Positions 5,838 through 63,748 of a stretch of DNA of 64,000 nt are shown here, piece after piece. Both the position numbers and the translations under genes were made by a program. Source of the stretch: Levilactobacillus acidifarinae DSM 19394 = JCM 15949 (GTDB lineage Bacteria; Bacillota; Bacilli; Lactobacillales; Lactobacillaceae); NCBI RefSeq assembly GCF_001434835.1, contig NZ_AZDV01000028.1, positions 300,363 to 364,362 on the forward strand, given 5' to 3'. Each line of letters opens with the position of its first letter. The first letter of the stretch is position 1. The notes below the pieces were generated by a model. That model had not been told where the DNA came from, did no database searches, and worked only from the letters and a program-made list of their open reading frames with translations.

Positions 5838-5985
5838 GTCCTCCGGCGCTCAGGGGCTGGAACGCTTGCGGGCACAACTTCGAACCTCGCAAAACCCGCG
5901 AGTTTTGAAGATTGGCCTTATTCTAGGCCGAGAGAATCACTCGACCAAGAATAATTTCGCCGGCTGAGCCCCTGCTCGCCTCCGG
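5838..5985 (+). repeat. Structured intergenic repeat, copy A (divergent)
   Basis: The outer arms AGGGGCT/AGCCCCT close a structure with an inner hairpin CTTCGAACCTCGC / GCGAG..GAAG and a second hairpin TTATTCT-A-GGCCGAG / CTCGACC-A-AGAATAA. It keeps the GGCTGGAACG and CTGAGCCCC signature sequences of the other copies but is the most diverged in between. Confidence 0.8.
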
Positions 5986-6110
5986 GCTGTACACTAACAC
6001 CATCAAGTTATAAATAGTTTAAGGATAGTCCCATCTTCATTCTGGTCGGTTGCGACAATTAGAATCCTAATTAACACTATCTTGCATGCCGCATAAATCA
6101 TTCACTAAGG

Positions 6111-6148
6111 AAGTCGTTAGCCAAACCTTGCTGGCTAACGACTTTTTT
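6111..6148 (+). terminator. Intrinsic terminator
   Basis: AAGTCGTTAGCC / GGCTAACGACTT followed by TTTT. It lies nearly 300 bp behind the permease, past repeat copy A, and may end either read-through or a separate small transcript. Confidence 0.8.
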
Positions 6149-6266
6149 CTGTCCCGCAACTCACGTATAATGTAACTACGAGTCGCGGCGTTACGCCCGA
6201 CTTCCCCTCACTGAACGCCGACGACTCTTCGTCCCCGTTCAACTTTTAGATTAAGGGAGTTCAGCC

Positions 6267-7163
6267 ATGTTAAGTATTCAACACATTCGTAAACGTTTCG
6301 ACGACGTGCTGGCGTTAAACGACGTTAGTTTCGACGTGGCCAACGGGCAGATTTTAGGCCTGATTGGTCAAAACGGGGCCGGGAAATCGACCACCTTTCA
6401 CAGTATCCTGAACTTCATCACCTACGACGGCCAGATTACCTGGCAGGGCCACGCCTTTACCGCGCAGGACTTTAACCACATCGGGTACCTGCCCGAGGAA
6501 CGCAGTCTGATGACCAAGCTGACCATCGAGCAGCAAATCGTCTACCTGGCCCGCCTGAAGGGGCAAAAGGCCCGCGATATTCGACCGCAAATTGACGACT
6601 GGTTGGCCCGGTTCGCCGTTAAGGGGACCCGTAAGAGTAAAATCGGCTCACTTTCCAAGGGAAATCAACAGAAGGTTCAACTGATCTGCACCCTGATTCA
6701 CCGCCCCGACCTTTTGATCCTCGACGAACCCTTTAGTGGCTTGGACCCGGTCAACGCCGACCTCTTAAAACAGGCCATCCTCGACGCCAAGCAACGCGGC
6801 GCGGCCATCATCTTCTCCAGTCACGACATGGAAAACGTCACGGAACTCTGCGACCAGCTGGTGATGCTGCGAACCGGAAACGTAGTCTTGCACGGCACTT
6901 TGCAGGACGTTCGGAATCAGTTCGGTAAGACCGAGTTGTTCGTGACCACCGATTGGTCGACCGACCGCTTAGCCGCCCTCCCTGGCGTGGCCAGCGTGAC
7001 GGTCCGCCAGCCGGGCCAGTACCGGTTACACCTGACCGCCGCCGACGCTGGGCCCGCCATTTTCCAGGAACTGACCCAGGGTCACTACATCGAGGAGTTC
7101 AGTCAGCAACCCCCGACCCTCGACGAAATCTTCCGTTTGAAAGTGGGTGAACCCCATGCTTAA
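6267..7163 (+). CDS. ABC transporter ATP-binding protein (NatA-like), 298 aa
   Basis: ATPase of an ABC-2 type exporter. Walker A is GQNGAGKST (residues 34-42), the signature is LSKGNQQKV (about 130-138) and Walker B is LLILDEPFSGLDP (about 151-163), with the switch His in SSHDMENV. The C-terminal 80 residues form the extra domain usual in NatA/YhaQ relatives. Start at 6267 with AAGGGAG ten bases upstream. It overlaps the permease gene start, so the two are co-translated. A -10 TATAAT lies at 6166-6171. The substrate is unknown; relatives export sodium, peptides or drugs. Confidence 0.9.
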   Translation: MLSIQHIRKRFDDVLALNDVSFDVANGQILGLIGQNGAGKSTTFHSILNFITYDGQITWQGHAFTAQDFNHIGYLPEERSLMTKLTIEQQIVYLARLKGQKARDIRPQIDDWLARFAVKGTRKSKIGSLSKGNQQKVQLICTLIHRPDLLILDEPFSGLDPVNADLLKQAILDAKQRGAAIIFSSHDMENVTELCDQLVMLRTGNVVLHGTLQDVRNQFGKTELFVTTDWSTDRLAALPGVASVTVRQPGQYRLHLTAADAGPAIFQELTQGHYIEEFSQQPPTLDEIFRLKVGEPHA

Positions 7164-8367
7164 AACCTGGATTGTTACCTGTGAAACCTACCTACGTCAG
7201 GTCAAATCCTGGAGTTTCTTCTTCATGGTCCTCGGCCCGTTTCTGATGCTGGGGCTGACCGTGGGGATCACCTACGTCAGCAGCCGTAGTAACGCCAGCA
7301 GTCAAAACATCGCCGTCATTGCGAAAACGCCAACGTTGCGGCAGAACTTCATCGCCGAGAATCCGTCGAACATCGATAAGCAAATCACGACGGTCAGTGC
7401 CGCCAAACAAGCTTTGCACCAAAATCACCTGGCCGGGTACCTGGTCTTAACTCAAACCGATCAACGTCTCCAAGCCGACTACCACGGTCCGAAAGCCCTA
7501 AGTAAGGGGCTCAAGGCCCAGGTGCAAAACTACCTGGCCCAGACGCAACAGGTCAAAAACTACCAACAAGCTAAGCTAACGGCCAAACAGCAGCGGCTCC
7601 TACAACGCACACCCAAGCTGACCCAGCACATCGCGGCCAGCACCGGGACGGCCAACCTGGCTAAGACCATTTCTTTTTGGCTGATTGTCACCATGATCTA
7701 CATCATTCTGGTGACCTACGCCTCGATCACCGCTCAGGAAATCGCCTCTGATAAGGGCACCAAGATCATGGAGATCATCTTCTCCAGTACCACCGCGGTC
7801 AGCTACTTTGTCGGGAAGATTTGTGGGATTCTGCTGGTGATCTTAACCCAGATCGCCATTTACCTGTTGGGTGGCTGGGCCATCTACAGTTGGGCGCTGA
7901 GTCGACCACATTTGCACGCGATGTGGACCCAATACCACGCGCTAGTCACGGCAATTCTGCACAACCTCTTAAACCTCAACTTACTCTACCTATTGGTCGG
8001 CGTGATTCTGTTCACCCTGGTTGCCGCCTACAGTGGGGCCGTGGTCGCCAAGGCCGAGGACGCCTCCAAGGCCGCCCAACCGGTGGTCATGTTGGGCATG
8101 GTCGGCTTCTTTGCCACCTTCCCCTTCCAGAACAATTTAGACGCCTTACCGGTCAAAATCATGTCCTACGTCCCGTTCCTGTCGTCGTACTTCATGCCGA
8201 TGCGGATCATCAACGGCACGGTCAGCCTAGGCACTCAGCTAATCTCGCTTGGCCTGGCTCTCTTGACGATTGCCGCTTTGGCCGGGTATATTGGGCGCAA
8301 GTACCAACACCTGATGTTACAGACCGATAGTCACAGTGTGTGGCAACACCTGTTGAAACGCCGTTAG
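7156..8367 (+). CDS. ABC-2 type permease (NatB-like), 403 aa
   Basis: Membrane partner of the preceding ATPase. One N-terminal membrane helix (residues 15-37) is followed by an extracytoplasmic domain of about 125 residues, then five or six helices ending at residue 390. Typical ABC-2 sequence DKGTKIMEIIFSST is seen after the second helix. Start ATG at 7156 overlaps the ATPase stop (7161-7163), with GTGGGTGA as ribosome site. A GTG at 7147 is possible but has no ribosome site. The ATPase, permease and the 123-aa gene form one operon. Confidence 0.88.
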   Translation: MLKTWIVTCETYLRQVKSWSFFFMVLGPFLMLGLTVGITYVSSRSNASSQNIAVIAKTPTLRQNFIAENPSNIDKQITTVSAAKQALHQNHLAGYLVLTQTDQRLQADYHGPKALSKGLKAQVQNYLAQTQQVKNYQQAKLTAKQQRLLQRTPKLTQHIAASTGTANLAKTISFWLIVTMIYIILVTYASITAQEIASDKGTKIMEIIFSSTTAVSYFVGKICGILLVILTQIAIYLLGGWAIYSWALSRPHLHAMWTQYHALVTAILHNLLNLNLLYLLVGVILFTLVAAYSGAVVAKAEDASKAAQPVVMLGMVGFFATFPFQNNLDALPVKIMSYVPFLSSYFMPMRIINGTVSLGTQLISLGLALLTIAALAGYIGRKYQHLMLQTDSHSVWQHLLKRR

Positions 8368-8380
8368 AAAGGACCTTTGC

Positions 8381-8752
8381 ATGTCAGAAAAAGACCGTTA
8401 TTATCAACCTTCGGACGTCACGGACGCCCTCACCGAGGTTCAAAAACTCTTCAACAGTTACCGCAACGCCCCGTTCACCCAGGAACTTCTGGACTATCAT
8501 CGTAAGTTGATTGACCGCTTAACGGGTGACTTACAGGACGCCGCGCGTGCCGAACAGCGCGACGACTTGGTCGAAGCAACCCAGGCCATGGCCCGTGCGA
8601 TGCAGGGGTGGATTCAAATTCGTTATAGCGGTCAACCCTACGCCGGCCGCCTGCGGCACTTCAAGTTCGTCCCCGATGCCACCGGTCCCAAGTTCAAACG
8701 TCACGTAGTCAAAGATCACGGTAGTGGTACGCACCGTAGTAGTCGCCACTAA
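8381..8752 (+). CDS. Conserved hypothetical protein, 123 aa
   Basis: Third gene of the ABC exporter operon, 13 bp behind the permease, with AAAGGA as ribosome site. A soluble, mostly helical protein (residues 10-85 heptad-like) with a basic His/Arg/Ser-rich tail (KRHVVKDHGSGTHRSSRH). No known domain was recognised. Its position suggests a role accessory to the exporter, but this is inference only. Confidence 0.75.
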   Translation: MSEKDRYYQPSDVTDALTEVQKLFNSYRNAPFTQELLDYHRKLIDRLTGDLQDAARAEQRDDLVEATQAMARAMQGWIQIRYSGQPYAGRLRHFKFVPDATGPKFKRHVVKDHGSGTHRSSRH

Positions 8753-8760
8753 TAGACTTA

Positions 8761-8812
8761 AACCGACCGTCCGACGGGAAACTATTCCCAGTTGGGCGGT
8801 CGGTTTATGTTT
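8761..8812 (+). terminator. Intrinsic terminator of the ABC exporter operon
   Basis: AACCGACCGTCC / GGGCGGTCGGTT followed by TATGTTTT, directly behind the 123-aa gene. Confidence 0.8.
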
Positions 8813-8860
8813 TCACGAGTAATCAACTAGAAAGCGTTTGCCTAAAATTAAGATTCCCGA

Positions 8861-8888
8861 TTAACTTTTTGATGGAAAGTGCTATAAT
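8861..8888 (+). promoter_or_regulatory. Promoter of tRNA-Ala
   Basis: -35 TTAACT (8861-8866) and -10 TATAAT (8883-8888) with a 16-base spacer, about 19 bases before the tRNA 5' end. Confidence 0.55.
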
Positions 8889-8906
8889 TAAACACGTAAG
8901 TTTTTT

Positions 8907-8979
8907 GGGTCCTTAGCTCAGTTGGGAGAGCGCCTGCTTCGCATGCAGGAGGTCGTCGGTTCAAATCCGGTAGGATCCA
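8907..8979 (+). tRNA. tRNA-Ala, anticodon CGC
   Basis: Full cloverleaf. Acceptor stem is GGGTCCT/AGGATCC with the alanine identity pair G3-U70, anticodon stem CCTGC/GCAGG with loop TTCGCAT (anticodon CGC, reads GCG), and T-loop TTCAAAT. Discriminator is A; no CCA is encoded. A single-gene unit. Confidence 0.95.
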
Positions 8980-9082
8980 TTTTTGTGTATTCGGGACTAA
9001 AGTACCTGCTTCAAGACACTGATATGGCAGCGTTTCTGGTTTAACACAATTGTAAAATGAACCAGTGGTGATAGGGATATTT

Positions 9083-9112
9083 AACTGTTAGCTTAACGGC
9101 TAGCAGTTTTTA
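9083..9112 (+). terminator. Hairpin terminator behind tRNA-Ala
   Basis: AACTGTTAGC / GGCTAGCAGTT followed by TTTAT. It lies about 100 bases behind the tRNA and 11 bases before the stop of the convergent permease gene. Confidence 0.65.
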
Positions 9113-9122
9113 TAATTGATAA

Positions 9123-10517
9123 CTATAAGTTTAACGGTCCGTCCGGTGTGTGAACCACAACATCAGTTTTCCGCCATAAAACTAGTACCATATATAACCA
9201 CAAGATAATCCCTACTCCTAAGTAAACTAAGAACGAAAGCCACGAATTTAAGCCTTGGCCCAGACTCGTGAAGAACGCGATAACTAAGGCAATAATCAAG
9301 GAAATCAACCGGGTAAATTGACCACCTGGCAATCGATACGTGGCCCATTCGGGATGTTTTCCATGAATTCTCATGGCCGAAATCATCGTGAGTGCATATG
9401 CGCACGCACAACCGAAGGCCATTAGATTAAAGAAGCTTTCCATGAAATTACTAGCATTCTGTAAAAAAATGAAAACCACGCTAATCACTAGTAGAAAGAT
9501 ATTCGGCAAAATAGGTTGTTGATGCTTATTCACCTTTGTAAATGCTTTGGGTAGATAGTTCTGTTCTCCCATGGCGTAGAGTAAGCGCACCGTTGCCATC
9601 CAAAATCCTAACAACGAAGCCCCCATCCCCAAAAGGACGGACGCTAAACCAAAAATTAACGGCCAAATTTCCCAACCTAATAAGTTTTTCATGGCTACAA
9701 TTGCCAAAAAACCATTAGCAGAATCCGCGGTTAATAGCTGACTGCTAGTTCCTAAACCGGCAATACAGAAAAAGTAAAAGACATAAATTGCCGCACACGT
9801 AATGACGGACCCGCGAATGGCCTTTCCAGTATCCTTAATCGGAAAGTCTCCTTCTTCCACCATTTCGGGAACCGTTTCAAAACCAAAAAAGGGTGTAATC
9901 AAGAGAGCCATCCCAATAATCCAAGCTGGCATTCCTGCCTGACCGATTAATTTTGAATTAAATAGCGGCGTTAAGTTGGAAATTGACCAATGACCACTAA
10001 ACAAGATGAGTAAACTCGTGATTAAAGTAGTCGCAATATTTGAAAACAGCATAATTCCTTGCGCCTTAATCAAAAATTGAACGTCCTGAAGACTGAGCAT
10101 AAAGTAAATCAACAAGATGACAATCCCCAGTATCACGATGTATTTAAAATCCAAGTTTAATTTAAATTGATAACTGATCCACGTCATAATTCCCATCACA
10201 ACCGCTGGTGGAACCGAAATCCAAGCCGCCATGATGAGCCAAGACGAGAAAAAGCCAACATGTTTATTCAATCCCACCGTGTTGTAAATTAGTTCCCCAC
10301 CATTTTGTTTAAAAATTGAAGATAGTTCGCCGTAAACAAATCCAATTGGTAAAATACACAGTGCCATTAAGGCAAAGGCAATGAAGGTCCCCGCTCCCGT
10401 ATACTTATAAAAGACCGAGTCCCAATAGGCAACGAACGTAAAGATTGCCCCGGTTGCCGCAATATAAACATAAATGAGATTAAGACTTTTCTTTAAACCA
10501 CTTTCCTTGTCTGTCAC
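9123..10517 (-). CDS. APC-superfamily amino acid permease, 464 aa
   Basis: About 12 membrane helices with the amino acid/polyamine/organocation pattern: helix 1 around AATGAIFTFVAYWDSVF, helix 2 with the conserved Glu in VYGELSSIFKQNGGELIYNT. The substrate cannot be assigned. Start is GTG at 10517 with GAGGAGAG about ten bases upstream. It sits 18 bp behind the UcpA-like oxidoreductase gene, so both are one transcript. The stretch 9.1-11.7 kb is visibly more A/T-rich than its surroundings and uses more A/T-ending codons, which suggests acquisition from another source. Confidence 0.88.
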   Translation of the reverse strand: MTDKESGLKKSLNLIYVYIAATGAIFTFVAYWDSVFYKYTGAGTFIAFALMALCILPIGFVYGELSSIFKQNGGELIYNTVGLNKHVGFFSSWLIMAAWISVPPAVVMGIMTWISYQFKLNLDFKYIVILGIVILLIYFMLSLQDVQFLIKAQGIMLFSNIATTLITSLLILFSGHWSISNLTPLFNSKLIGQAGMPAWIIGMALLITPFFGFETVPEMVEEGDFPIKDTGKAIRGSVITCAAIYVFYFFCIAGLGTSSQLLTADSANGFLAIVAMKNLLGWEIWPLIFGLASVLLGMGASLLGFWMATVRLLYAMGEQNYLPKAFTKVNKHQQPILPNIFLLVISVVFIFLQNASNFMESFFNLMAFGCACAYALTMISAMRIHGKHPEWATYRLPGGQFTRLISLIIALVIAFFTSLGQGLNSWLSFLVYLGVGIILWLYMVLVLWRKTDVVVHTPDGPLNL

Positions 10518-10535
10518 CTCGGTTCTCTCCTCTCG

Positions 10536-11336
10536 CTATTCCGAACCGACCGAAACTGTTTCTGGTAAGGTACTCCCCCCGTCGATGACGACCGGCGTGG
10601 CCGTTAAGTAAGAAGCACGATCACTCAATAAGAATGCTGCCAGTTCTCCCACTTCTTCGATGGTTCCTAAGCGATGCTGAAGCGGCACTGCACTGGCAAT
10701 CCCTTGAGTCGTTTGATTAGGATCATCCGGGGTAGATTCTTGGGCGATTTGATCCGCCATTGGGGTTTGAATATATCCGGGTAAAATTGCATTCGCCGTG
10801 ATTCCATATTGGGCGACCTCTCTGGCCACTGCACGGGTAAAGCCCATAATTGCTGCCTTAGTCGTCGCGTAAGCACATTCACCAGGGTCTGCCACCATGA
10901 CTCCCGTGACACTGGACATATTGCAAATTCGGCCCTTTTTATGAGCAATCATAGTTGGCAAAACCGCTTTGGTAACATTCCAGACCCCGTTTATATTGAT
11001 GGAAAATTGGAGGTCTCGATCCTGATCGCTGGTATTAAGTAGTGAACCTAACCGAATGATCCCTGCATTATTCATTAAACCGTCAATCGTTCCGTAGTGT
11101 TCGATGACCTGGGCAACCCCCTGCTGCACACTAGTCGTTTCCGCAACGTTCATTTTGACACCAAAAACATCATAATTTGCGGCTTGCAAATTATGAACAG
11201 TTTCATCCAATTTTTCAGAAATATCAGCTAAGGCCACTTTAGCCCCGTGGGCCGCCAAGACTTTGACAATTCCTAATCCATTTCCCATTGCGGCTCCAGT
11301 AACCAAAACAACTTTTCCAGCTAAATCACTCATCAT
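10536..11336 (-). CDS. ucpA: SDR-family oxidoreductase, UcpA-like, 266 aa
   Basis: NAD(P)-dependent short-chain dehydrogenase. The cofactor loop is VTGAAMGNGLGI (about residues 13-24), NNAG lies near 90, and the catalytic Ser and YxxxK are in MSSVTG and YATTK (about 145-165). The stretches VADPGECAY and VIDGGSTLPETVSVG closely match Escherichia coli UcpA as I recall it, a protein linked to sulfur metabolism and furfural tolerance. The physiological substrate is unknown. Two ATG codons lie at the start; AAAGGAG is five and eight bases before them. First gene of a two-gene unit with the APC permease. Confidence 0.87.
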   Translation of the reverse strand: MMSDLAGKVVLVTGAAMGNGLGIVKVLAAHGAKVALADISEKLDETVHNLQAANYDVFGVKMNVAETTSVQQGVAQVIEHYGTIDGLMNNAGIIRLGSLLNTSDQDRDLQFSININGVWNVTKAVLPTMIAHKKGRICNMSSVTGVMVADPGECAYATTKAAIMGFTRAVAREVAQYGITANAILPGYIQTPMADQIAQESTPDDPNQTTQGIASAVPLQHRLGTIEEVGELAAFLLSDRASYLTATPVVIDGGSTLPETVSVGSE

Positions 11337-11779
11337 AAATGCTCCTTTCTAGTGTTCAACATTTAACAATATAAGCATATCATTAAATATCAAGAAACAA
11401 AACTGACTTTTTTAGTCCGTCTAAATTCGAGCTGAAATAATCATTGTTATCCTTATATTTACTGTTATAGTAAAGAAGATTCGTAACATCTATGCTTCTA
11501 ATAAAATCAATAAAAATTATTTTTAGTCAATAGTTATTATAATCACAATCAAATTCATTTAAGACCAAACCAAGATATCTTTAACCAACAGTTTGGGGCG
11601 TTCAATAAGTCAAGTTCCCCCTTTTAAACGCCACAACCACCATCCCCTCAGTTCCAAAAATGGTGGTTGTTTTAATCCTTCATACGTTACGAATTATCAA
11701 TGTCATATATTACGTAGACCAATTACTAATCAGATTGGTAAAGTGCTAAACTAAAATCACTTACAGGAGGTGCTTCGTG
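11337..11779. other. A/T-rich intergenic region with a possible unannotated transcript
   Basis: No ORF of note. A promoter-like pair on the + strand (TTGTTA 11444-11449, TATAGT 11466-11471, 16-base spacer) and the orphan terminator at 11633-11674 could bound an RNA of roughly 195 nt. This is inference. Confidence 0.4.
11633..11674 (+). terminator. Orphan intrinsic terminator
   Basis: ACAACCACCAT / ATGGTGGTTGT followed by TTTT. No + strand gene lies upstream before the tRNA, so it ends either a small RNA or the remains of a lost gene. Confidence 0.75.
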
Positions 11780-12220
11780 ATGAAGACGAAAAAATTAATT
11801 TTAACCCTAGTTCTAGGCCTTGGCTTGGGCGGTGGTTTAACCACCCTGAACGCTCCCGTTTCCGCAGCAGCCAAAGCCAATCCTCAATTTAAAACTTATC
11901 AAACGATTCCCAAGGTCATGCGGGGAACGTGGCGGACGGCCAACAAAAAGATGACGTATAAGTTCTACAAAAAATCCTATACGATTATCGATGCGCGAAA
12001 GAAACCGGTCACTACGAAGTTTACTCCTAAGGAATTTGAAAATGTTTCCTACTCGTACGCCCGCAAAACTTATGAAATCTATGCTCGAGTCACCAAGCAA
12101 AACGTCGGCTATGCCGGATACAACGAATATCACCCCATGACCCGCCACGGAAAAAAGGTCCTGAGACTAACTCTCCCTGCTAATGCCACTACTTACCGTT
12201 ACTTATACAAGGTTAAATAG
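11780..12220 (+). CDS. Secreted small basic protein, 146 aa
   Basis: A Sec signal peptide (KTKKLILTLVLGLGLGGGLT, cleavage likely after VSA near residue 30) is followed by a compact basic domain of about 110 residues beginning IPKVMRGTW. The same opening (TPKVLRGTY) is found in the secreted protein at 39.2 kb, so the two are distant paralogs. No catalytic motif is seen. ATG at 11780 follows AGGAGG by nine bases; a GTG one codon earlier is also possible. Function unknown; probably cell-surface or extracellular. Confidence 0.8.
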   Translation: MKTKKLILTLVLGLGLGGGLTTLNAPVSAAAKANPQFKTYQTIPKVMRGTWRTANKKMTYKFYKKSYTIIDARKKPVTTKFTPKEFENVSYSYARKTYEIYARVTKQNVGYAGYNEYHPMTRHGKKVLRLTLPANATTYRYLYKVK

Positions 12221-12283
12221 CTAATATTATTTAATATAGCGCCTTGACAACCAAAAGCCCCATTTGACTGAAAGTTATTCAGA

Positions 12284-12326
12284 GACCCGATTGTTTCCCT
12301 CATGGAAAACGACCGGGTCTTTGTCA
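12284..12326 (+). terminator. Hairpin terminator
   Basis: GACCCGATTGTTTCC / GGAAAACGACCGGGTC followed by TTTG. It lies 60 bases behind the secreted protein gene. The T tract is short. Confidence 0.55.
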
Positions 12327-12500
12327 ATCATGTATTTTCTTCTGCTGATACAAGCACGTCCCCCTACGCTAAAGTGTCCAATTCACCCCTCAAACCCACC
12401 ATTCTCAATCCACTTTATTAAAAGCGCTAATTTAACGTTTAATAAATCTGATTTTTGTGCAACAATAATCGTAGTCAAATATTTGGAGGATGGATTAATT

Positions 12501-13220: not shown

Positions 13221-13261
13221 TTTCTAGTACTTCGAATACATTTCTCTAGTTATCCCTCACT

Positions 13262-13306
13262 AAAAGACTGGCCGCTCCCCCATCCGGGAAAGCGGCCAGT
13301 CTTTTA
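13262..13306. terminator. Bidirectional terminator
   Basis: AGACTGGCCGCT / AGCGGCCAGTCT with four T on either side. It serves the convergent secreted-protein and MutS2-like genes. Confidence 0.9.
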
Positions 13307-13310
13307 GGCG

Positions 13311-14849: not shown

Positions 14850-14869
14850 AAGTTCTCCTCTAAGTTGCC

Positions 14870-14901
14870 AGACAATGGAGAACGGGTCCTGTCCATTGTC
14901 T
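14870..14901 (-). promoter_or_regulatory. Perfect 10-bp inverted repeat in the leader of the MutS2-like gene
   Basis: AGACAATGGA and TCCATTGTCT are separated by 12 bases. It lies about 20 bases before the start codon, just upstream of the ribosome site. It could be an operator or a leader hairpin. Confidence 0.5.
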
Positions 14902-15036
14902 CGCCCTAATTCAGTTCAGACGGCGTCAGACAGATTGCCACACTCATTAACGTCACTCCTCGTATTAGTCGAATAGTCCCAGAATAGCATGTTGACGGCG
15001 CGGGTTCAAACCCTAAGTGCTTAACTTGGCGCCGAC

Positions 15037-15074
15037 TAAAAGGGAGCCTGACCGCATAACCGGCAGACTCCCTT
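15037..15074 (-). terminator. Terminator downstream of pnuC
   Basis: On the minus strand AGGGAGTCTG pairs with CAGGCTCCCT, followed by TTTT. It acts as a second terminator behind the one at 15102-15130. Confidence 0.7.
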
Positions 15075-15101
15075 GCTAATTTTATCGATGATCACCGTTT
15101 T

Positions 15102-15130
15102 AAATAAGCCCAATCAATCCGGGCTTATTT
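15102..15130 (-). terminator. Terminator overlapping the pnuC stop codon
   Basis: AAATAAGCCC / GGGCTTATTT with a nine-base loop. One arm overlaps the last codon and stop of pnuC. Confidence 0.65.
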
Positions 15131-15850: not shown

Positions 15851-15852
15851 GA

Positions 15853-41347: not shown

Positions 41348-41502
41348 GCTTCCGGACCAGTCAGAAACGGGCTGGAACGGGGCGGGCACGGCTTCAAGCC
41401 CTTAAACCAGGTCTTGAAGACCGACCTTTGTCTAACCCGGTAAAAATCACCGGCTAAGACAAATTTCGCCCCTGAGCCCATTTCTAACTGGTCCTCCAGC
41501 TC
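41348..41502 (+). repeat. Structured intergenic repeat, copy B
   Basis: The outer stem is GGACCAGTCAGAAACGGGCT with AGCCCATTTCTAACTGGTCC. The inner stem is GGGGCG/CGCCCC, hairpin 1 CTTCAAG/CTTGAAG, hairpin 2 TTTGTCT-A-ACCCGG / CCGGCT-A-AGACAAA. Confidence 0.88.
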
Positions 41503-41672
41503 ACACTAGCACCAATGACCTTCTTCATGGTCATTGACCAATTGTTATTTTAATAACACGAGCCTCATGCCTAATTCAATCTTCGACCAACGTTTGAGAC
41601 AGTTTCTAATTCCCGTCGCGGGATTATTTGGCTATTGTACACTACCTGTCTGGCAAATGGCTTAGAAATTTC

Positions 41673-49160: not shown

Positions 49161-49316
49161 CGCTTCTGGGGCAGTCAGAAACGGGCTGGAACGGGATGGG
49201 CACGGCTTTGAGCCCTAAGTCCGGGTCTCAAAGTCCGACCTTTGTCTAAGCCGACCAAAAACGTCGGCTAAGACAAACCACATCCCTGAGCCCATTTCTA
49301 ACTGCCCCTTCAGCTC
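49161..49316 (+). repeat. Structured intergenic repeat, copy C
   Basis: The outer stem is GGGGCAGTCAGAAACGGGCT with AGCCCATTTCTAACTGCCCC. The inner stem is GGGATG/CATCCC, hairpin 1 CTTTGAG/CTCAAAG, hairpin 2 TTTGTCT-A-AGCCGAC / GTCGGCT-A-AGACAAA. Confidence 0.88.
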
Positions 49317-52309: not shown

Positions 52310-52467
52310 CGCTTCCGGGCCAGCCAGAAAATGGGTTGGAACGGGGTGGGCGCGGCTTCAAGCCCCCAAAACCGGGTCTTGAAGACCGACCTTTATCTAA
52401 GCCGGCAAACAACACCGGCTAAGATAAATTTCACCCCTGAGCCCCTTTCTGACTGACCCTCCAGCTT
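52310..52467 (+). repeat. Structured intergenic repeat, copy D
   Basis: The outer stem is GGGCCAGCCAGAAAATGGGTT with GGCCCCTTTCTGACTGACCC, imperfect. The inner stem is GGGGTG/CACCCC, hairpin 1 CTTCAAG/CTTGAAG, hairpin 2 TTTATCT-A-AGCCGG / CCGGCT-A-AGATAAA. Confidence 0.87.
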
Positions 52468-53695: not shown

Positions 53696-53706
53696 TCAAA
53701 TTCTGA

Positions 53707-56174: not shown

Positions 56175-56244
56175 TGCGCATTTCCTCCTCAATCTGTCTT
56201 GTGTTGTTAAAATTTACTTTATGTGAATCATTCGTCTACCGGTC

Positions 56245-56375
56245 GGCCCTGGTGAGGCTGGAACGGGGTGGGCACGACTTTGAGCCCGAAAAACAGGTCT
56301 CAAAGTTCGACCTTTGTGTAAGCCGGGAAAGAACCCCGACTAACACAAACGACACCCCTGAGCCCCACCAGGACC
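56245..56375 (+). repeat. Structured intergenic repeat, copy E, between galK and galE
   Basis: The outer stem is CCTGGTGAGGCT with AGCCCCACCAGG. The inner stem is GGGGTG/CACCCC, hairpin 1 CTTTGAG/CTCAAAG, hairpin 2 TTTGTGT-A-AGCCGGG / CCCGACT-A-ACACAAA. It is shorter than the others at the outer arms. It faces copy F. Confidence 0.88.
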
Positions 56376-56425
56376 TTCCTCACGACTATACTAGCGTTAA
56401 ATGTTAATCTAACGTGAGCCGTGAG

Positions 56426-56567
56426 GTCAGCCCTGATATGGCTCAATAGCCTCGTTGGTCTTAGCCGAGTGAATTTCTCGGGTTAGACCAAGACCGAGCT
56501 TGAAGACTCGCGCCTTTGGCGAGGCTTCAAGTCGTGTCGGCTACGTTCCAGCCATATCAGGGCTGAC
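56426..56567 (-). repeat. Structured intergenic repeat, copy F, inverted
   Basis: Lies on the minus strand 50 bp from copy E. Outer stem of 18 perfect pairs, GTCAGCCCTGATATGGCT with AGCCATATCAGGGCTGAC. Hairpin 1 is CTTGAAG..CTCGC/GCGAG..CTTCAAG, hairpin 2 TTGGTCT-A-ACCCGAG / CTCGGCT-A-AGACCAA. The outer arm sequence is unlike all other copies although pairing is perfect. Confidence 0.9.
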
Positions 56568-56588
56568 CGGTAAGGCGTCTATTACCGC

Positions 56589-57758: not shown

Positions 57759-57781
57759 GGCGATGAACTCCTTTAGAATTT

Positions 57782-57797
57782 TAGTAAACTTTTACTA
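57782..57797 (-). promoter_or_regulatory. GalR-type operator at the galK promoter
   Basis: TAGTAAA-CT-TTTACTA, a perfect 7-2-7 palindrome close behind the -10 box, where a LacI-family repressor would block transcription. Confidence 0.75.
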
Positions 57798-57804
57798 TAG
57801 TTTA

Positions 57805-57833
57805 ACTATACTCAGTAAAAGTCTCAGTGTCAA
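57805..57833 (-). promoter_or_regulatory. galK promoter
   Basis: On the minus strand -35 TTGACA (57828-57833) and -10 TATAGT (57805-57810) with a 17-base spacer, a near-consensus promoter. Confidence 0.8.
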
Positions 57834-57839
57834 ATATAA

Positions 57840-57854
57840 TTAAAGCGGTTTCAA
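57840..57854 (-). promoter_or_regulatory. Candidate cre (CcpA) site upstream of galK
   Basis: On the minus strand TTGAAACCGCTTTAA fits the WTGNAANCGNWNNCW consensus except for one position. Upstream of the -35, where CcpA repression is plausible. Confidence 0.6.
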
Positions 57855-57909
57855 CAACATTTCAAGAAAAGGGGCCCCGGTCTGAGACCTGAGACCCCCG
57901 AACAACTGA

Positions 57910-59343
57910 TTAGTCCCCGATCTTTTGACCAGCAGCCTTTTCAGCCTTTAATTTCTTTTCCAAATCTTCGACGATTTCCGCGTGTCGTTGTTCGGACAAC
58001 TTGATCTTGCCAAAGTAAACGATGGCGGCCAAGATAATCAGAATAATTGGAATGTAGAAGATAAACATCTTAAACTGCATCAACCCACCGGCCGAAATAT
58101 CGGACGGCTTGGCGTTCCCGGTCATCCCGGATTGCAGTGCGGCTAACATAACCACCCCGTTGGCGAACGCACCGGCCAATTTATCGATCAACGGCCGAAC
58201 GGCTAAGGTCACGGATTCGTTCCGCGTGCCGTTCTTCCACTGGCCGTATTCCACACTATCGGTAATGGTCATTAAGGCGGCCAAGAAGATCATTGGGTAT
58301 GGGAAGAAGTAGAACGCAACCCCGACCAAGACCATCGTGACGTTGGTACCGGCAAACAAGAAGATTAAGTAACCGACCACCATCAAGGCAATCCCGCCGA
58401 CGTAAACCCCACGCCGTTTGATCAGGCTAACCATGAATGGGAACAGAACCACGGAGATAATTCCTAAGATGGCGGTAATGACCCCGACCATACTGTAAGC
58501 GGCCGGCTTCCCAATAACGTAACGGAAGTAGTAGAGCAACAGGGAGTTGGTGATGACATACCCAAAGGCGAACAGGAAGTAGGAAAGTGCCAACCACATT
58601 AATTGGTCGTTTTCCCCAATGGCCTTGAAGACGTCGCGTAAACGGGTCTTTTCGGTGTTTTCCCGAATCAGGTTCTTTTGTTCCTTAGTCCCAAACGCAG
58701 CGGTCAAGGCCCCTAAGAAGGAAACGACGGCGATGACGGCGGCAAACCCTAACCAACCGGCGCGGGTCTGCGTTTGACCAGTGGTGCCGGAGAACTTCTG
58801 ACTGAAGAAGTAAACCAACGGCATAACCACGATGATGACCCCTTGAGCCCCTAACGTGGACCCAAAACGAGCGACCGTCCCAAACTTAGTCCGGGTCTTG
58901 GAATCAACACTCAACGCGGGCAACATGGACCACAACGAAATATCTTTGAAGGAATAAAAAATATCTAAGATAACAAACACAATGCCAAAGACAATCAGGT
59001 ATAACATGTCGTTGTGATCGGCCAACCCACCAATACTGGTGAAGATGATCATCAGGGTAATGGAACTAACCAGCCCACCACCGAGTAACCACGGTTTGAA
59101 CTTGCCCCAACGGGTCCGAGTGTTATCCACGACCCCACCGATCATCGGGTCAAAGGCAATTTCAATCAACCGAATAATCACCAGCATGGCACTGACGGCC
59201 CCGATCATTTGCGCGGAGTTCGCGTGACCGGTGAACAGGACACTGGTGACGAAGATTGGGAAGTAGGTACTTAACGTTGCGTAGAACGCATCGTGCCCGA
59301 ACGCCCCAAACGCATAAGACGCATACTGCTTAAATAAATTCAT
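57910..59343 (-). CDS. GPH-family galactoside:cation symporter (LacS/GalP-like, no EIIA domain), 477 aa
   Basis: Twelve-helix transporter of the glycoside-pentoside-hexuronide family: YASYAFGAFGHDAFYATLSTY at the N-terminus, the cytoplasmic loop DNTRTRWGKFKPW, and SVEYGQWKNGTRNESV near residue 365. Streptococcal LacS is about 630 aa with a C-terminal PTS IIA domain; this protein ends after a short charged tail. Probably imports galactose and/or lactose; sugar not provable. Lies 52 bp behind the 79-aa gene. Confidence 0.9.
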   Translation of the reverse strand: MNLFKQYASYAFGAFGHDAFYATLSTYFPIFVTSVLFTGHANSAQMIGAVSAMLVIIRLIEIAFDPMIGGVVDNTRTRWGKFKPWLLGGGLVSSITLMIIFTSIGGLADHNDMLYLIVFGIVFVILDIFYSFKDISLWSMLPALSVDSKTRTKFGTVARFGSTLGAQGVIIVVMPLVYFFSQKFSGTTGQTQTRAGWLGFAAVIAVVSFLGALTAAFGTKEQKNLIRENTEKTRLRDVFKAIGENDQLMWLALSYFLFAFGYVITNSLLLYYFRYVIGKPAAYSMVGVITAILGIISVVLFPFMVSLIKRRGVYVGGIALMVVGYLIFLFAGTNVTMVLVGVAFYFFPYPMIFLAALMTITDSVEYGQWKNGTRNESVTLAVRPLIDKLAGAFANGVVMLAALQSGMTGNAKPSDISAGGLMQFKMFIFYIPIILIILAAIVYFGKIKLSEQRHAEIVEDLEKKLKAEKAAGQKIGD

Positions 59344-59395
59344 GGCTCTTTTTCACACCTTTCAAATTAATCACTTAAGTTAACGAACGAAGTGC

Positions 59396-59635
59396 CTAGT
59401 GGTAACGATGTTCAATGATCTTGGACAACACGTCATCACGCTTCTGGGCTTTCGCCATGTCGAAGCGGGATTCCTCAAGGTTGTTAAAATCTTGAGCCAG
59501 CAACGTTGCTTCCAGATACAGCGTCAATTGCCGCTTAATGTACAATTTATTGGCTTCGTCGGGACGTTGCGCGTTACCGCCCAACACCGCGGCTGCAAAA
59601 GCAGCTGGATCTAACGTGATTTTGTCGTCAGCCAT
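59396..59635 (-). CDS. Small conserved protein, 79 aa, first of a paralog pair
   Basis: The product (MADDKITLDPAAFAAAVLGG..) is about 60-65% identical by eye to the 80-aa protein at 60.1 kb. Helical, with AAVLGGNAQ and LYIKRQLTLYLEATLLAQDF as shared core. No family known. Its gene leads the transcript of the GPH transporter and has a cre-bearing promoter. Confidence 0.78.
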   Translation of the reverse strand: MADDKITLDPAAFAAAVLGGNAQRPDEANKLYIKRQLTLYLEATLLAQDFNNLEESRFDMAKAQKRDDVLSKIIEHRYH

Positions 59636-59700
59636 TCAAAAATACCCTCTTTCCGTTCATCATAAGATTCGGTAAAGCCTATCACTGAAATTTAAGTAAA

Positions 59701-59714
59701 TGTAAGCGCTTTAC
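59701..59714 (-). promoter_or_regulatory. cre site of the 79-aa gene/GPH transporter transcript
   Basis: TGTAAGCGCTTTAC, a near-perfect catabolite-responsive element just downstream of the -10 box. Confidence 0.78.
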
Positions 59715-59721
59715 GTTACTT

Positions 59722-59750
59722 ATAGTAGGACCTTTCCGGCGAAGTTGCAA
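59722..59750 (-). promoter_or_regulatory. Promoter of the 79-aa gene and GPH transporter
   Basis: On the minus strand -35 TTGCAA (59745-59750), 17-base spacer, -10 TACTAT (59722-59727). Confidence 0.68.
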
Positions 59751-59807
59751 CCTCAATCATTGTGTAGTGTTAAACATAAAATCCTTTATATCGGCGTTTT
59801 TTCGGGA

Positions 59808-59823
59808 TTGCAACCGGTTGTAA
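59808..59823 (-). promoter_or_regulatory. 16-bp near-palindrome upstream of the promoter
   Basis: TTGCAACC-GGTTGTAA, one mismatch, with a central CG as in LacI/CcpA-family sites. A possible second operator. Confidence 0.5.
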
Positions 59824-59865
59824 TTTTGAGGTAAAAAATTTAGTAAAGCTAACGACTTAAGCCAT

Positions 59866-59904
59866 AAAAAAGACCCGTCTAGCCCAATTAATGGGTTAGA
59901 CGGG
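59866..59904 (-). terminator. Terminator of the 80-aa gene
   Basis: On the minus strand CCCGTCTAACCC pairs with GGGCTAGACGGG, followed by TCTTTTTT. Confidence 0.85.
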
Positions 59905-59910
59905 AGTTAC

Positions 59911-60054
59911 TAGGGTCCGTCTTAAAACTCAAGTACAGAGTTAAATGACCATTCATGACCTCTCAGTTGAAAAATCTGGTTTAGTCGTTGTTATAACTCG
60001 TTTCTGACTGGCCAGCGCTGAATCTTCCAGATTAGTCTTTTAAGACAGACTCTA
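59911..60054. repeat. MITE-like inverted-repeat element, 144 bp
   Basis: The ends TAGGGTCCGTCTTAAAA (59911-59927) and TTTTAAGACAGACTCTA (60038-60054) are inverted repeats with two mismatches. The centre has an imperfect second pairing. One stretch (CCAGTCAGAAACGAG, minus strand) resembles the left end of the A-G repeats, but the internal structure is different. No transposase nearby. Confidence 0.55.
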
Positions 60055-60060
60055 GGTTAA

Positions 60061-60303
60061 TTAATTGTAGCGCCGTTCGATTAACTTCAACAGAATATCG
60101 TCACGTTGTTGTTCCTTAGCATCGCTGAACCGGGTTTGTTCCAACCCGTTAAAGTCCTGGGCCAAAAGGGTGGCTTCCAAGTACAAAGTCAGTTGCCGCT
60201 TGATGTACAACTTATTTTCTTCGTCCTTTTTCTGCGCGTTACCGCCCAATACCGCTGCCGCAAACTTCTCAGGATCTAACTTCATCTTATCTTTTGCCAT
60301 CAC
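60061..60303 (-). CDS. Small conserved protein, 80 aa, second of a paralog pair
   Basis: Paralog of the 79-aa protein (MAKDKMKLDPEKFAAAVLGG..). Good promoter at 60400-60428 and its own terminator. No family known. Two copies flanking the gal transporter promoter region suggest a duplicated gene; function unknown. Confidence 0.78.
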   Translation of the reverse strand: MMAKDKMKLDPEKFAAAVLGGNAQKKDEENKLYIKRQLTLYLEATLLAQDFNGLEQTRFSDAKEQQRDDILLKLIERRYN

Positions 60304-60399
60304 ACAGTCCCGCTTTCTCGTCCCAGCTCCCCAGTTATTTGGTCGCTAGGTTATCTTATTTTACAACCATTTCGGTCACTAATAGTTTATCCAAAATGC

Positions 60400-60444
60400 A
60401 TTATAGCAACTTGTGAAAGTTTTGGCAATGTTGTAACCGCTACC
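60400..60444 (-). promoter_or_regulatory. Promoter and cre-like site of the 80-aa gene
   Basis: On the minus strand -35 TTGCCA (60423-60428) and -10 TATAAT (60400-60405), 17-base spacer. Immediately upstream, GGTAGCGGTTACA (60432-60444) fits a cre core. The 5' leader is about 95 bases. Confidence 0.7.
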
Positions 60445-60514
60445 GATTTAAAAAAGATGACCGTCTAGTTCTAGCGACCGTTAAGTTAGCCCCTAGTAAC
60501 GAGTCAGTCCACGT

Positions 60515-60557
60515 AAAAGTGGCTCCCCACAGTTGAACACCCCGGGGAGCCACTTTA
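60515..60557 (-). terminator. Terminator behind the phosphoglucomutase gene
   Basis: On the minus strand AAAGTGGCTCCCC pairs with GGGGAGCCACTTTT. Confidence 0.75.
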
Positions 60558-60565
60558 ATTTTTAA

Positions 60566-62299
60566 TTAGTTAATCGACGCTACGTAGTCCTTCAACGCTT
60601 GTTCGTACTTGCTTAAGCGTTGATTGGCTGCATCGGCCGTCTGGTCGCTGGTCCCGATGTAGAACTTGACCTTAGGCTCGGTCCCGGAAGGCCGGATGCA
60701 AATCCAAGTCCCATCGTGTAACCAGTACTTCAGGACGTTGGATTGTGGCAGATCAATGGCCGTGGTCGTCCCATCGGCCGCCGTCTTCACGCTGGTCTGG
60801 AAGTCTTCGACGGCGTCAATCGCGGTGCCGGCAAAGTCGTGCGGTGCATTTTCACGGAATTCACTCATCAACTTCGCCCGTTGCGCGGAACCGTCGACGC
60901 CCTGGAATTCCTCAAACGTGGTCTTTTCGGCGTAGTAGCCGTAAGTCGCGTAGAGCTCCTCGATGCCGTCGTACAGGGTCATTCCCCGTTGCTTGTAGTC
61001 CGCCGCCACTTCGGCCAACAGGACCGTCGATTGAATGGCGTCCTTATCGCGCACGAACGGTTTGATCAGGTAACCGTAACTTTCCTCAAACCCAAACAGG
61101 AAGGTGTGGTCGTGGGTCGTTTCGTACTGGTGGATCTGTTCGGCAATAAACTTAAAGCCGGTCAACACGTTGGTCATTTCCACGCCGTAAGCCGCCGCAA
61201 TCTTGGTGGCTAATTCGGTTGACACGATGGACTTGACTACGCGGCCGTTCGCTGGCAAATCACCCGCGGCCTTGCGCGCCTTTAAGATGTAGGCTAACAA
61301 GATCGACGCAATCTGGTTCCCAGTCAATAGTTGGTACTCACCGTTCGGTTGCCGGACAGCGGCGCCTAACCGGTCGGCATCGGGATCGGTAGCCACTAAC
61401 AGGTCGGCCCCTTCTTGCTTCCCTAACGCGATGGCCATGTCAAAGGCCGCCGGAAATTCGGGGTTCGGAAAATCAACCGTCGGAAATTCAGGGTCGGCAA
61501 TCGCCTGTTGTGGCACCATGGTAAAGTTCTCGAAACCGGCTTTTCGTAAGGCCCGTTCACCGATCACTTTCCCGGTTCCGTGCAGGGGTGTGTAAATCAA
61601 CTTCATGGTCTTCCCGACCTTATTGATGAGGTCATGGTTGATGGTCACACTGGTGACGTTTTGCAGGTAGGGCTGGTCAACGTCCTCACCGATGATGTGC
61701 ATCAGTTTAGCCTGGCGCAGTGCCTGTTCGTCGGCCACCTGGATGGCAAACACGTCGGTAGCGGACCGGACGAACTTGGTGATCATGTCCGAGGCCTTGG
61801 GCGGCATCTGCCCGCCATCGGGGCCGTAGATCTTGTAACCGTTGTACTGCTTGGGGTTGTGGCTGGCCGTGATCATGATTCCCATGGCCGTGTGCAGGTG
61901 CCGCACGGCAAAGGACAATTCCGGCGTGGGCCGTAAGTCATCAAACACGAAGCTCGGAATCTGATGAGCCCCTAAGACCCGGGCCGCTTCGTGGGCGAAT
62001 TCCGTGGAATGGTAGCGCGAATCAAAGCTAATGGCGACCCCACGTTGCTTGGTGGCGTCGTCTAGGGTGTCCAGATACCGGGCCACCCCTTCGGTCGCTT
62101 GCCGCACCGTGTAAACGTTCATTTGCCCGATACCGGGGCCCATAACGCCCCGCATACCGGCGGTCCCGAAGCTCATCGGCCCACTAAAAGCGGCTTCGAG
62201 GGCTTGGTCGTCGCCCGCCATGGCGTCCAGTTCACGCTGCACGTCCGGTAACATGGTCGGTTGTTTTTGCCAAACGGCATAGTTTTCTTGCCAACTCAA
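60566..62299 (-). CDS. pgm: Phospho-sugar mutase (alpha-phosphoglucomutase), 577 aa
   Basis: Interconverts glucose-1-P and glucose-6-P and links the Leloir pathway to central metabolism. Active-site Ser in TASHNPKQYNGYK (about 147-159), metal loop TDPDADRLG (about 302-310), sugar loop GFEESYGYL (about 405-413) and phosphate loop RPSGTEPKVKFYIG near the C-terminus. Size and FGTAGMRG motif mark the PgcA-type of Firmicutes. Upstream lies galM with 78 bp between. Confidence 0.93.
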   Translation of the reverse strand: MSWQENYAVWQKQPTMLPDVQRELDAMAGDDQALEAAFSGPMSFGTAGMRGVMGPGIGQMNVYTVRQATEGVARYLDTLDDATKQRGVAISFDSRYHSTEFAHEAARVLGAHQIPSFVFDDLRPTPELSFAVRHLHTAMGIMITASHNPKQYNGYKIYGPDGGQMPPKASDMITKFVRSATDVFAIQVADEQALRQAKLMHIIGEDVDQPYLQNVTSVTINHDLINKVGKTMKLIYTPLHGTGKVIGERALRKAGFENFTMVPQQAIADPEFPTVDFPNPEFPAAFDMAIALGKQEGADLLVATDPDADRLGAAVRQPNGEYQLLTGNQIASILLAYILKARKAAGDLPANGRVVKSIVSTELATKIAAAYGVEMTNVLTGFKFIAEQIHQYETTHDHTFLFGFEESYGYLIKPFVRDKDAIQSTVLLAEVAADYKQRGMTLYDGIEELYATYGYYAEKTTFEEFQGVDGSAQRAKLMSEFRENAPHDFAGTAIDAVEDFQTSVKTAADGTTTAIDLPQSNVLKYWLHDGTWICIRPSGTEPKVKFYIGTSDQTADAANQRLSKYEQALKDYVASIN

Positions 62300-62377
62300 A
62301 TCGAATCTCTCCTTCTGCTGATAACCTTAGTTAATCTCTATCGTACTCGTTTCTACTGGGACTGACCAGTTACGCCG

Positions 62378-63397
62378 TTACTTGCGGACGTATTGGTAGG
62401 CAATCGTGTGCGTGACCGGTTGGTTAGCAGGAAGAACAATGTCCCCAAAGTCCTCGTGATGAATAGCATCGGGGAGATTCTGCGCTTCCAAAGCCAAGGC
62501 GTTGTAATCGCGTTTGGCAGCCCGGGCCGGATCCGTGGCGTTGGCTGTGAAGACCACCACCCCGTTGCGGTCGGAATAGATCCGCACTTCCCGGTGACCG
62601 GTCGTATCGCCGACCGTGGCAATTGGCTCGTCGCCCGCCTTGACCTCAAAGGCATCGTCGTATTCGACACCGCCATTTTCGGCGAGTTGGGCTAACCCGT
62701 CTTTGATGGTCCGGGATTCACGGAAATCGTAGCCCGTACCAGCCACGTCAGCCTTTTCACCAGTTGGGATCTTTTCGTCGTTTAAAATTAAACGCTTGTC
62801 GGCATTCAAGGTCAACCATTGTTGATCCAAATCATGTTGATCGTCAGTTACATTAAAGTACGCGTGAATTGTGGGATTAAACAGCGTCGCAGCGTCGCTC
62901 TTCCCGTCAAACGTTACCGTTAACCGGTCGTTTTCGTCCAAGGTATAGGTAATCGTGGTCGTTAAGTTCCCCGGATACTGGTCATCTTGCGGGGTTGAGG
63001 TGTGGGTCAAAATCACACTAGCCGTGCTGGCCGTTTCCTTCGTCGTGGCGTCCCAGTTAACGTGCAGAAAGCCGTGGGGCCCACCATGAATGGCGTTTTT
63101 GCCCTCCGTAGCTTCGATGTGGTGGGGCGTCCCATCAATTTCAAACTCGGCCCCCTTGATCCGTCCGGCAACCCGACCGAGAGCTTGGCAGAGACAATAA
63201 GTATTGTTATCGTAAGCCGCTAAGTTGTCTTCGTGAACGGCGAGTTGTTGCCGTTTCCCATCTTCTAAGGCACTAAATTCTTGCAGGGTGGCCGCCCAGG
63301 TCAGAATCGCCGCGCGGGTCCCGTGTTGATTGGTTAAAACGTACTTGGTCACTTTTTGTTGGTGAAGTTCGCCAGCAACTTCTTGAGTAATTTGCAT
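62378..63397 (-). CDS. galM: Aldose 1-epimerase, 339 aa
   Basis: Converts beta- to alpha-galactose for GalK. Family features: GRVAGRIKGAEFEIDG, AIHGGPHGFLHVNW (active His in HGG), FNPTIHAYFNV (second His) and the catalytic Glu in the NALALEAQNLPDAIHH segment. Start has GGAGGTGTC upstream. Same strand and pathway as the gal genes, just upstream of pgm. Confidence 0.92.
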   Translation of the reverse strand: MQITQEVAGELHQQKVTKYVLTNQHGTRAAILTWAATLQEFSALEDGKRQQLAVHEDNLAAYDNNTYCLCQALGRVAGRIKGAEFEIDGTPHHIEATEGKNAIHGGPHGFLHVNWDATTKETASTASVILTHTSTPQDDQYPGNLTTTITYTLDENDRLTVTFDGKSDAATLFNPTIHAYFNVTDDQHDLDQQWLTLNADKRLILNDEKIPTGEKADVAGTGYDFRESRTIKDGLAQLAENGGVEYDDAFEVKAGDEPIATVGDTTGHREVRIYSDRNGVVVFTANATDPARAAKRDYNALALEAQNLPDAIHHEDFGDIVLPANQPVTHTIAYQYVRK

Positions 63398-63507
63398 AAA
63401 AGAGACACCTCCAAAAATTCTAAGAATACGGTTACATTGTATAATACTCGGCGTTTAAGTACCATTGTTTTTCGCGATTAAGTAAAATTTTACGCAAATT
63501 TTCCTAA

Positions 63508-63542
63508 CAAAAAGCCCCCGCTCACCGCGCGTAGCGGGAGCT
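63508..63542 (-). terminator. Terminator upstream of galM, for the gene at the right edge
   Basis: On the minus strand AGCTCCCGCT pairs with AGCGGGGGCT, followed by TTTTTG. It separates galM from the preceding transcript. Confidence 0.75.
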
Positions 63543-63604
63543 GGGACTTTCTATAAATTAATGATCATTACGCAAAATCAATTTAGATAGGCCAGACGCT
63601 TCCG

Positions 63605-63748
63605 GGACCGGTCAGAAAACGGGCTGGAACGGAGCGGGCACGGCTTCAAGCCCCCCAAACCGGGTCTTGAAGACCGACCTTGGTCTAAGTCGTCTAAGAA
63701 CGCCGACTAAGACCAATTTCACCCCTGAGCCCATTTTCTGCCTGGCCC
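63605..63748 (+). repeat. Structured intergenic repeat, copy G
   Basis: The outer stem is GGACCGGTCAGAAAACGGGCT with AGCCCATTTTCTGCCTGGCC. Hairpin 1 is CTTCAAG/CTTGAAG, hairpin 2 TTGGTCT-A-AGTCG / CGACT-A-AGACCAA. The inner short stem is partly broken (GGAGCG against CACCCC). Confidence 0.87.

What the first reader, a model, noticed from the sequence alone, without database searches (positions are those of the whole stretch)
5838..63748. Family of seven 140-bp structured intergenic elements with changing but paired arms
Copies lie at 5838-5985, 41348-41502, 49161-49316, 52310-52467, 56245-56375, 56426-56567 (inverted) and 63605-63748. All share GGCTGGAACG near the left and CTGAGCC near the right. 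All fold as a long outer stem, two internal hairpins and, in most, a short stem. Arms change together: hairpin 1 is CTTCAAG/CTTGAAG in some and CTTTGAG/CTCAAAG in others; hairpin 2 is TTTGTCT/AGACAAA, TTTATCT/AGATAAA, TTTGTGT/ACACAAA, TTATTCT/AGAATAA. An unpaired A opposite A is kept in hairpin 2. The outer stem of copy F shares almost no sequence with the others but pairs perfectly over 18 bp. This points to selected RNA structure rather than mere descent. It could be a mobile palindromic element or a recurring RNA. I know of no named family it fits.
Basis: partly seen in the sequence, partly recalled or inferred. Interest (0 to 1): 0.85.

Follow-up and report, generated by a model that had tools for sequence, protein, structure and literature searches.

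The report
Folded mobile DNA repeats in lactobacilli
The seven copies belong to a large family of mobile DNA repeats, not described in the sources searched, spread through the lactobacilli; their 150-base core keeps one three-armed folded shape while many of its letters change in matching pairs, so the shape itself seems to matter.

Summary
A covariance model from the seven copies finds 60 in this 2.9-Mb genome (two further matches are reverse-strand shadows). Matches occur in 33 of 35 genomes of the genus (Levilactobacillus, by contig-length match) and in 93 of 301 genomes and 14 of 40 genera sampled from the family; in 198 genomes of the order the 4 positives are all of that family. No Rfam family fits. 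Pairing is selected or restored: in 134 copies, 47 of 53 pairs show two-sided changes and the covariation score is 0.52 against 0.13 shuffled. The elements are mobile: young copies are units of about 287 bp with inverted ends and CTAG duplications, and A, G and a core-less relic are missing at matching sites in a sister species. Close neighbours are nearly always convergent pairs (9 of 9 in this genome, 48 of 50 in another). RNA is not shown: G-U pairs are no commoner than A-C mismatches (77 vs 116), unlike tRNA stems (33 vs 1). I favour a non-autonomous mobile element whose core acts as folded DNA; an RNA role is the main rival. A terminus desert in three genomes is unexplained and not general.

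The parts
5839..5985 (+). copy A, core with short outer stem (subtype t2); the inserted unit spans about 5816-6108 between CACTAA repeats at 5810-5815 and 6103-6108; the first overlaps the TAA stop of the xanthine permease gene
   Evidence: G034 has an empty site
41348..41499 (+). copy B, core (subtype t1); decayed right end GTTTGAGACAGTTTCTAA at 41592-41609
   Evidence: orthologue in G034 with 3 compensated double changes
49162..49313 (+). copy C, core (t1)
   Evidence: orthologous site occupied in G034
52311..52464 (+). copy D, core (t1)
   Evidence: orthologue 96.8% identical
56234..56385 (+). copy E, core, left member of a convergent pair
56419..56575 (-). copy F, core, right member of the same pair (unit 56234-56575)
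   Evidence: decayed in G034 (16 single breaks)
63598..63753 (+). copy G, core (t1)
   Evidence: no counterpart in G034
59910..60055 (.). relic of the t1 unit: both inverted ends and CTAG duplications present, most of the core deleted
   Evidence: absent in G034

Best explanation
A family of non-autonomous mobile elements, found here only in Lactobacillaceae, built around a core of about 150 bases that folds as an outer stem opening into a three-way junction with two hairpins. Shown: the spread, insertion polymorphism, inverted ends and CTAG duplications for one Levilactobacillus subfamily, frequent convergent pairing of cores, and pairing kept through double changes across genera and between orthologous copies. 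Inferred: (1) that subfamily is moved by an IS5-type transposase acting on its ends (about 0.75); (2) the core is a portable module that helps the unit spread or be kept and acts mainly as folded DNA (a hairpin on one strand or a cruciform), recognised by an unknown protein through its fixed unpaired bases (about 0.45).
For: Covariation 0.520 vs 0.131 shuffled and at most 0.081 slid, 47 of 53 pairs with two-sided changes; 31 of 44 pairs in a model-free alignment of 25 copies. Watson-Crick-only turnover: 77 G-U, 116 A-C of 6314 cells with two near-fixed G-T columns set aside, against 33 and 1 of 527 in tRNA stems. Fixed A-A mismatch in 115 of 128 and bulged T in 126 of 132. Empty sites; identical young copies with CTAG duplications; an IS5-type transposase gene beside a similar end. 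Orthologous sites: 36 compensated doubles vs 27 single breaks at ten sites, 3 vs 16 at decayed F.
Against: No binding protein or autonomous copy was found. Single mismatches at the kept sites are 12 A-C to 3 G-U, and the minus strand folds more stably as RNA in 7 of 7 copies, which would fit a minus-strand RNA. Gene conversion between copies occurs: in four of ten orthologous sites a paralogue is closer than the orthologue. F has decayed, so a given copy is dispensable. The other end of the IS and its action on the unit were not tested.
Confidence: 0.5

Rival explanations
1. The core works as RNA: transcribed from neighbours or its own promoter, it acts as a 3' stabiliser, processing site or small RNA, as proposed for BOX, ERIC and Correia elements. 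If both orientations are transcribed, both strands must pair, which would keep G-U and A-C rare alike.
For: Very strong covariation; copies often lie shortly after a gene's end, 45 of 59 between tandem genes; mild minus-strand excess of G-U; minus-strand RNA folds more stably in 7 of 7.
Against: G-U is rare on either strand compared with tRNA stems. No transcription data were available. The fixed unpaired bases are strand-specific, which a two-strand role does not need.
Confidence: 0.3
2. The arms match only because replication errors copy one arm from the other (template switching), plus gene conversion among copies; no function for the fold.
For: Double changes far outnumber those expected from independent change at orthologous sites, and copies do exchange cores. 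Such errors leave Watson-Crick pairs, fitting the rarity of both G-U and A-C.
Against: Arm copying would also erase the A-A mismatch and bulged T, yet these stay in 115 of 128 and 126 of 132 copies. Unpaired motifs are conserved across genera. F decayed without repair.
Confidence: 0.12
3. A REP/REPIN-like system moved by a Y1 (RAYT) transposase.
For: High copy number, intergenic placing, inverted pairs of hairpins; weak association with PF01797 (odds ratio 2.06, p 0.007, kinship ignored).
Against: 54 of 93 element-bearing genomes have no PF01797 match, among them the copy-rich G018, G020 and G033. One subfamily has inverted ends and a 4-bp duplication.
Confidence: 0.04

Closest known systems
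BOX, RUP and SPRITE repeats of Streptococcus pneumoniae (PMC3049150, passages read)
   Same: Many intergenic copies, no gene of their own for movement, strong secondary structure, thought mobile and placed mostly where insertion is tolerated
   Different: Here one branched core is shared across many genera in units with different ends, with measured pair compensation; no sequence comparison with BOX was made
MITEs, such as Correia and Nezha elements (background passages of PMC3049150; otherwise recalled)
   Same: The t1 subfamily has inverted ends, a CTAG duplication, no gene, and a resident IS5-type element with a similar end
   Different: The core is kept while the rest decays and recurs in units with other ends or none recognised
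REP sequences and REPINs (recalled; listings PMC3116915 and PMC2817692 seen)
   Same: Inverted pairs of folded units in intergenic DNA
   Different: About 150 bases with a three-way junction, and no general link to a Y1 transposase
attC sites of integrons (recalled)
   Same: Variable but paired arms and fixed extrahelical bases, the folded strand being what is read
   Different: Two internal hairpins; integrases and cassettes were not looked for

Membership tests
MITE of an IS5-type element (Levilactobacillus subfamily t1 only) | Terminal inverted repeats | tested here: met
   Both ends matched 144-288 bp apart in G000 and 287-309 bp apart in G034; shown. Not seen around the paired subtypes of Levilactobacillus.
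MITE of an IS5-type element (Levilactobacillus subfamily t1 only) | Target-site duplication | tested here: met
   CTAG on both sides of L256, L257 and L258 in unrelated flanks; empty site of the relic in G034
MITE of an IS5-type element (Levilactobacillus subfamily t1 only) | An IS in the same genome with matching ends | tested here: inconclusive
   TAGGGACTGTCTGAAAA beside frames matching PF13340 and PF01609, against TAGGGYCTGTCTTAAAA of the unit; similar, not identical; only one end was looked at
Rfam RNA families | Score at or above a family's gathering threshold | tested here: not met
   No match on the copies in the window or in 10 further loci; three sub-threshold matches near B at E 1 or worse
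REP/REPIN with RAYT | Y1 transposase (PF01797) in the host | tested here: not met
   54 of 93 element-bearing genomes lack it
BOX elements | boxA-boxB-boxC modules | not tested
   No BOX sequence was compared
attC sites | Recombined by an integron integrase | not tested
   No integrase search was made
Structured RNA gene or cis-element | Transcription as a defined RNA | not testable with these tools
   No RNA-seq available

The most novel reading that the evidence does not exclude
The core is a portable folded-DNA signal shared by otherwise different mobile units across a bacterial family: a branched single-stranded or cruciform structure, kept by Watson-Crick-only compensation, that an undiscovered host or mobile protein reads through a fixed A-A mismatch and bulged T. 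In some species it may also be tied to chromosome layout, since it avoids the terminus there.
Probability: 0.2. Interest if true: 0.82.

Novelty: new variant of a known kind. Interest (0 to 1): 0.6.

Why it matters
Small bacterial repeats are often treated as degenerate leftovers. Here one shape has been kept across at least 14 genera while its letters turned over, in units with different ends. That is a clean test case for selection on folded DNA, with a ready set of natural compensatory mutants. It also matters for annotation: at least 135 copies sit in one 2.8-Mb genome (150 candidates scored), and Rfam has no family for them.

Tried and rejected
Rfam membership: no. Plasmid and phage carriage: blastn with copy B alone found nothing in either collection, and one exact pattern found none in viral contigs; divergent copies could be missed.

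Y1 transposase dependence: rejected as a rule.

Autonomous copy: not found, but the search was partial. Where both ends of the Levilactobacillus unit matched in G000 they lie 144-288 bp apart. In P. damnosus G494 the 1641-bp gap between ends holds ordinary genes and two broken copies and a 4.3-kb gap holds ordinary frames (by reading); other end pairs of the two Pediococcus genomes were not opened, and three further fetched stretches (L233-L235) were not examined. A 778-bp gap in L162 shows no transposase-like frame (by reading).

Terminus avoidance as a general rule: rejected. G018 has 1 of 135 copies in the 0.8 Mb around the skew switch, G034 1 of 39 in 1.14-2.12 Mb, and contig C2 of G000, which spans the switch, 2 of 60. 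But G004 (58 of 118 matches listed) and G032 (91 of 139 listed) show no terminus desert, and the 14 copies of G082 are spread. G000 and G034 are close relatives, and the limits were drawn after seeing the data, so the binomial values overstate it.

Transcription terminator: no T-run stands out after the outer stem (by eye, not counted).

Literature: searches listed no description of this family (titles and abstract starts seen). Passages of PMC3049150 were read; for PMC2267715 one table row naming L. johnsonii was seen; PMC12306157 had no hit for four lactobacillus terms or Firmicutes.

Full report
What was checked. The seven copies are real and fold as described. Each 'shared' motif is exact in 6 of 7: D has GGTTGGAACG and F has TTGAGCC. 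The 10-mer GGCTGGAACG occurs 51 times in the genome against 9 for the reversed control.

Extent. A model from the seven copies gives 62 matches in the genome; two are reverse-strand shadows of palindromic copies, leaving 60. In the genus 33 of 35 genomes have matches; G011 and G024 have none (at most 87 candidates scored per genome). A wider model from 73 copies finds 93 of 301 family genomes and 14 of 40 genera (10 scored per genome, stricter filters), and 4 of 198 order genomes, all four of the same family. Contig lengths tie genus-mates to names (G015 C1, 157496 bases, L. lindianensis; G020 C139, 78760 bases, L. paucivorans; G007 C52, 110584 bases, Ca. L. faecigallinarum), so I infer that the window's genus is Levilactobacillus. 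Nothing matched in plasmid, phage or viral collections at the sensitivities used.

Structure. In 134 copies from 80 named loci (132 distinct rows counted), 94.7% of cells pair, 47 of 53 pairs have two-sided changes and the covariation score is 0.520, against 0.131 (sd 0.004) shuffled and at most 0.081 with partners slid. That alignment was fitted to the model, so I repeated the test on 25 copies, picked by hand for diversity and aligned by MAFFT alone: 31 of 44 predicted pairs have two-sided changes. Hairpin 2 holds an A-A mismatch in 115 of 128 copies (A-T in the other 13) and hairpin 1 a bulged T in 126 of 132. Both lie outside the pattern used to find the loci; GGCTGGAACG and GTGGGCACGACTT lie inside it, so their conservation in that set is biased.

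RNA or DNA. With two near-fixed G-T columns set aside, the 134 copies have 5910 Watson-Crick cells, 77 G-U, 116 A-C and 211 others; A-C exceeds G-U in each of the five named genera counted and in the rest. Twenty-four distinct tRNAs from the loci in hand have 493 Watson-Crick, 33 G-U and 1 A-C of 527 pairs (the finder favours paired stems). RNA helices tolerate G-U, so this fits a constraint on DNA or on both strands. The excess of A-C on the plus strand means more G-U on the minus strand: among single mismatches at the ten kept orthologous sites it is 12 A-C to 3 G-U (12 others), against 4 to 6 (6 others) in decayed F. Minus-strand RNA also folds more stably in 7 of 7 copies. So a minus-strand RNA stays possible.

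Mobility. Genome G034 aligns with most of the window in the same order, with several gaps of 1.5-3.5 kb. B, C, D, E and F have counterparts at the same sites; A, G and the core-less unit at 59910-60055 do not. A lies between CACTAA repeats, the left one overlapping the stop codon of a xanthine permease gene. In G034 the copies L256 and L257 are identical over the whole unit and L258 nearly so, in unrelated flanks, each bounded by CTAG; TAG to CTA they measure 287 bp. The ends TAGGGYCTGTCTTAAAA resemble TAGGGACTGTCTGAAAA beside two frames matching PF13340 and PF01609. In P. ethanolidurans and P. damnosus the unit is about 510 bp with quite different ends and two cores. In L. zeae and L. chiayiensis the core sits in one long hairpin and the model found no partner within 700 bp.

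Pairs. In G018, 50 neighbour gaps are shorter than 700 bp and 48 of them join convergent copies; 96 of 135 copies are in such pairs, with spacers of 44-69 or 107-315 bp. In G000, 9 of 9 such gaps are convergent (18 of 60 copies), E-F among them. Some partners are divergent subtypes with an extra hairpin (by eye).

Kept after insertion. Among 27 copies of the t1 subfamily, picked by hand, core identity averages 87% and arm identity 55%, core above arms in 344 of 351 comparisons; among the seven G034 copies the means are 92% and 88%. Misalignment of old arms inflates the contrast. At 11 orthologous sites of G000 and G034 (those found in the stretches fetched), the ten with a kept core show 36 compensated double changes against 27 single breaks, plus 7 doubles and 4 singles not paired on both sides; decayed F shows 3 and 16. 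In four of the ten, one of the other ten G000 copies in this set is closer than the orthologue, so replacement or gene conversion occurs; not all 60 paralogues were compared. In the other six (B a tie), doubles are 10 and single breaks 14, by addition. Selection on the fold is the simplest reading, with arm-templated mutation and conversion as likely contributors.

Context. Of 59 G000 copies with a predicted gene on both sides, 45 lie between tandem, 7 between convergent and 7 between divergent genes; 5 of 60 overlap short predicted frames of 86-100 codons. These were crude open-frame picks.

Reading. I take these as non-autonomous mobile elements that carry a conserved branched core. How the core works is inferred: folded DNA read by a protein is my first choice, an RNA role second, mutation-driven palindrome repair third. 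The kind is known (MITE-like structured repeats such as BOX); the variant is new in the sources searched (one three-way-junction core shared by units with different ends across a bacterial family).

Noticed in passing
G018 C1 1.0-1.8 Mb; G034 C1 1.14-2.12 Mb; G000 contig C2: Copies are nearly missing around the replication terminus (1 of 135, 1 of 39, 2 of 60), but not in G004, G032 or G082. The pattern recalls the terminus-free spread of nucleoid-occlusion sites (recalled, not tested).
   Followed up: partly
window 56234-56575: The convergent pair E-F sits between galE and galactokinase genes on the minus strand; an effect on that gene cluster is possible but untested.
   Followed up: no
window 4192-4290: A purine riboswitch (Rfam RF00167, 67.2 bits) lies just upstream of the xanthine permease gene whose stop codon is the insertion site of copy A.
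   Followed up: no
L252 (G034 C1 1035915 onward): An IS5-type element with its transposase in two overlapping frames; ends with the same sequence recur in several genus genomes, often near contig ends.
   Followed up: partly
L077, L078, L069, L068, L081: The minus-strand partner in these pairs seems to be a longer subtype with an extra hairpin, which the model matches only in part; it may be a second family of its own.
   Followed up: no
L143:6759-6899 and L166:2040-2187 (L. zeae): Two copies share an insertion (GCGACGCGAAGCTAGAGCGGA) replacing CTGGAACG in the junction.
   Followed up: no
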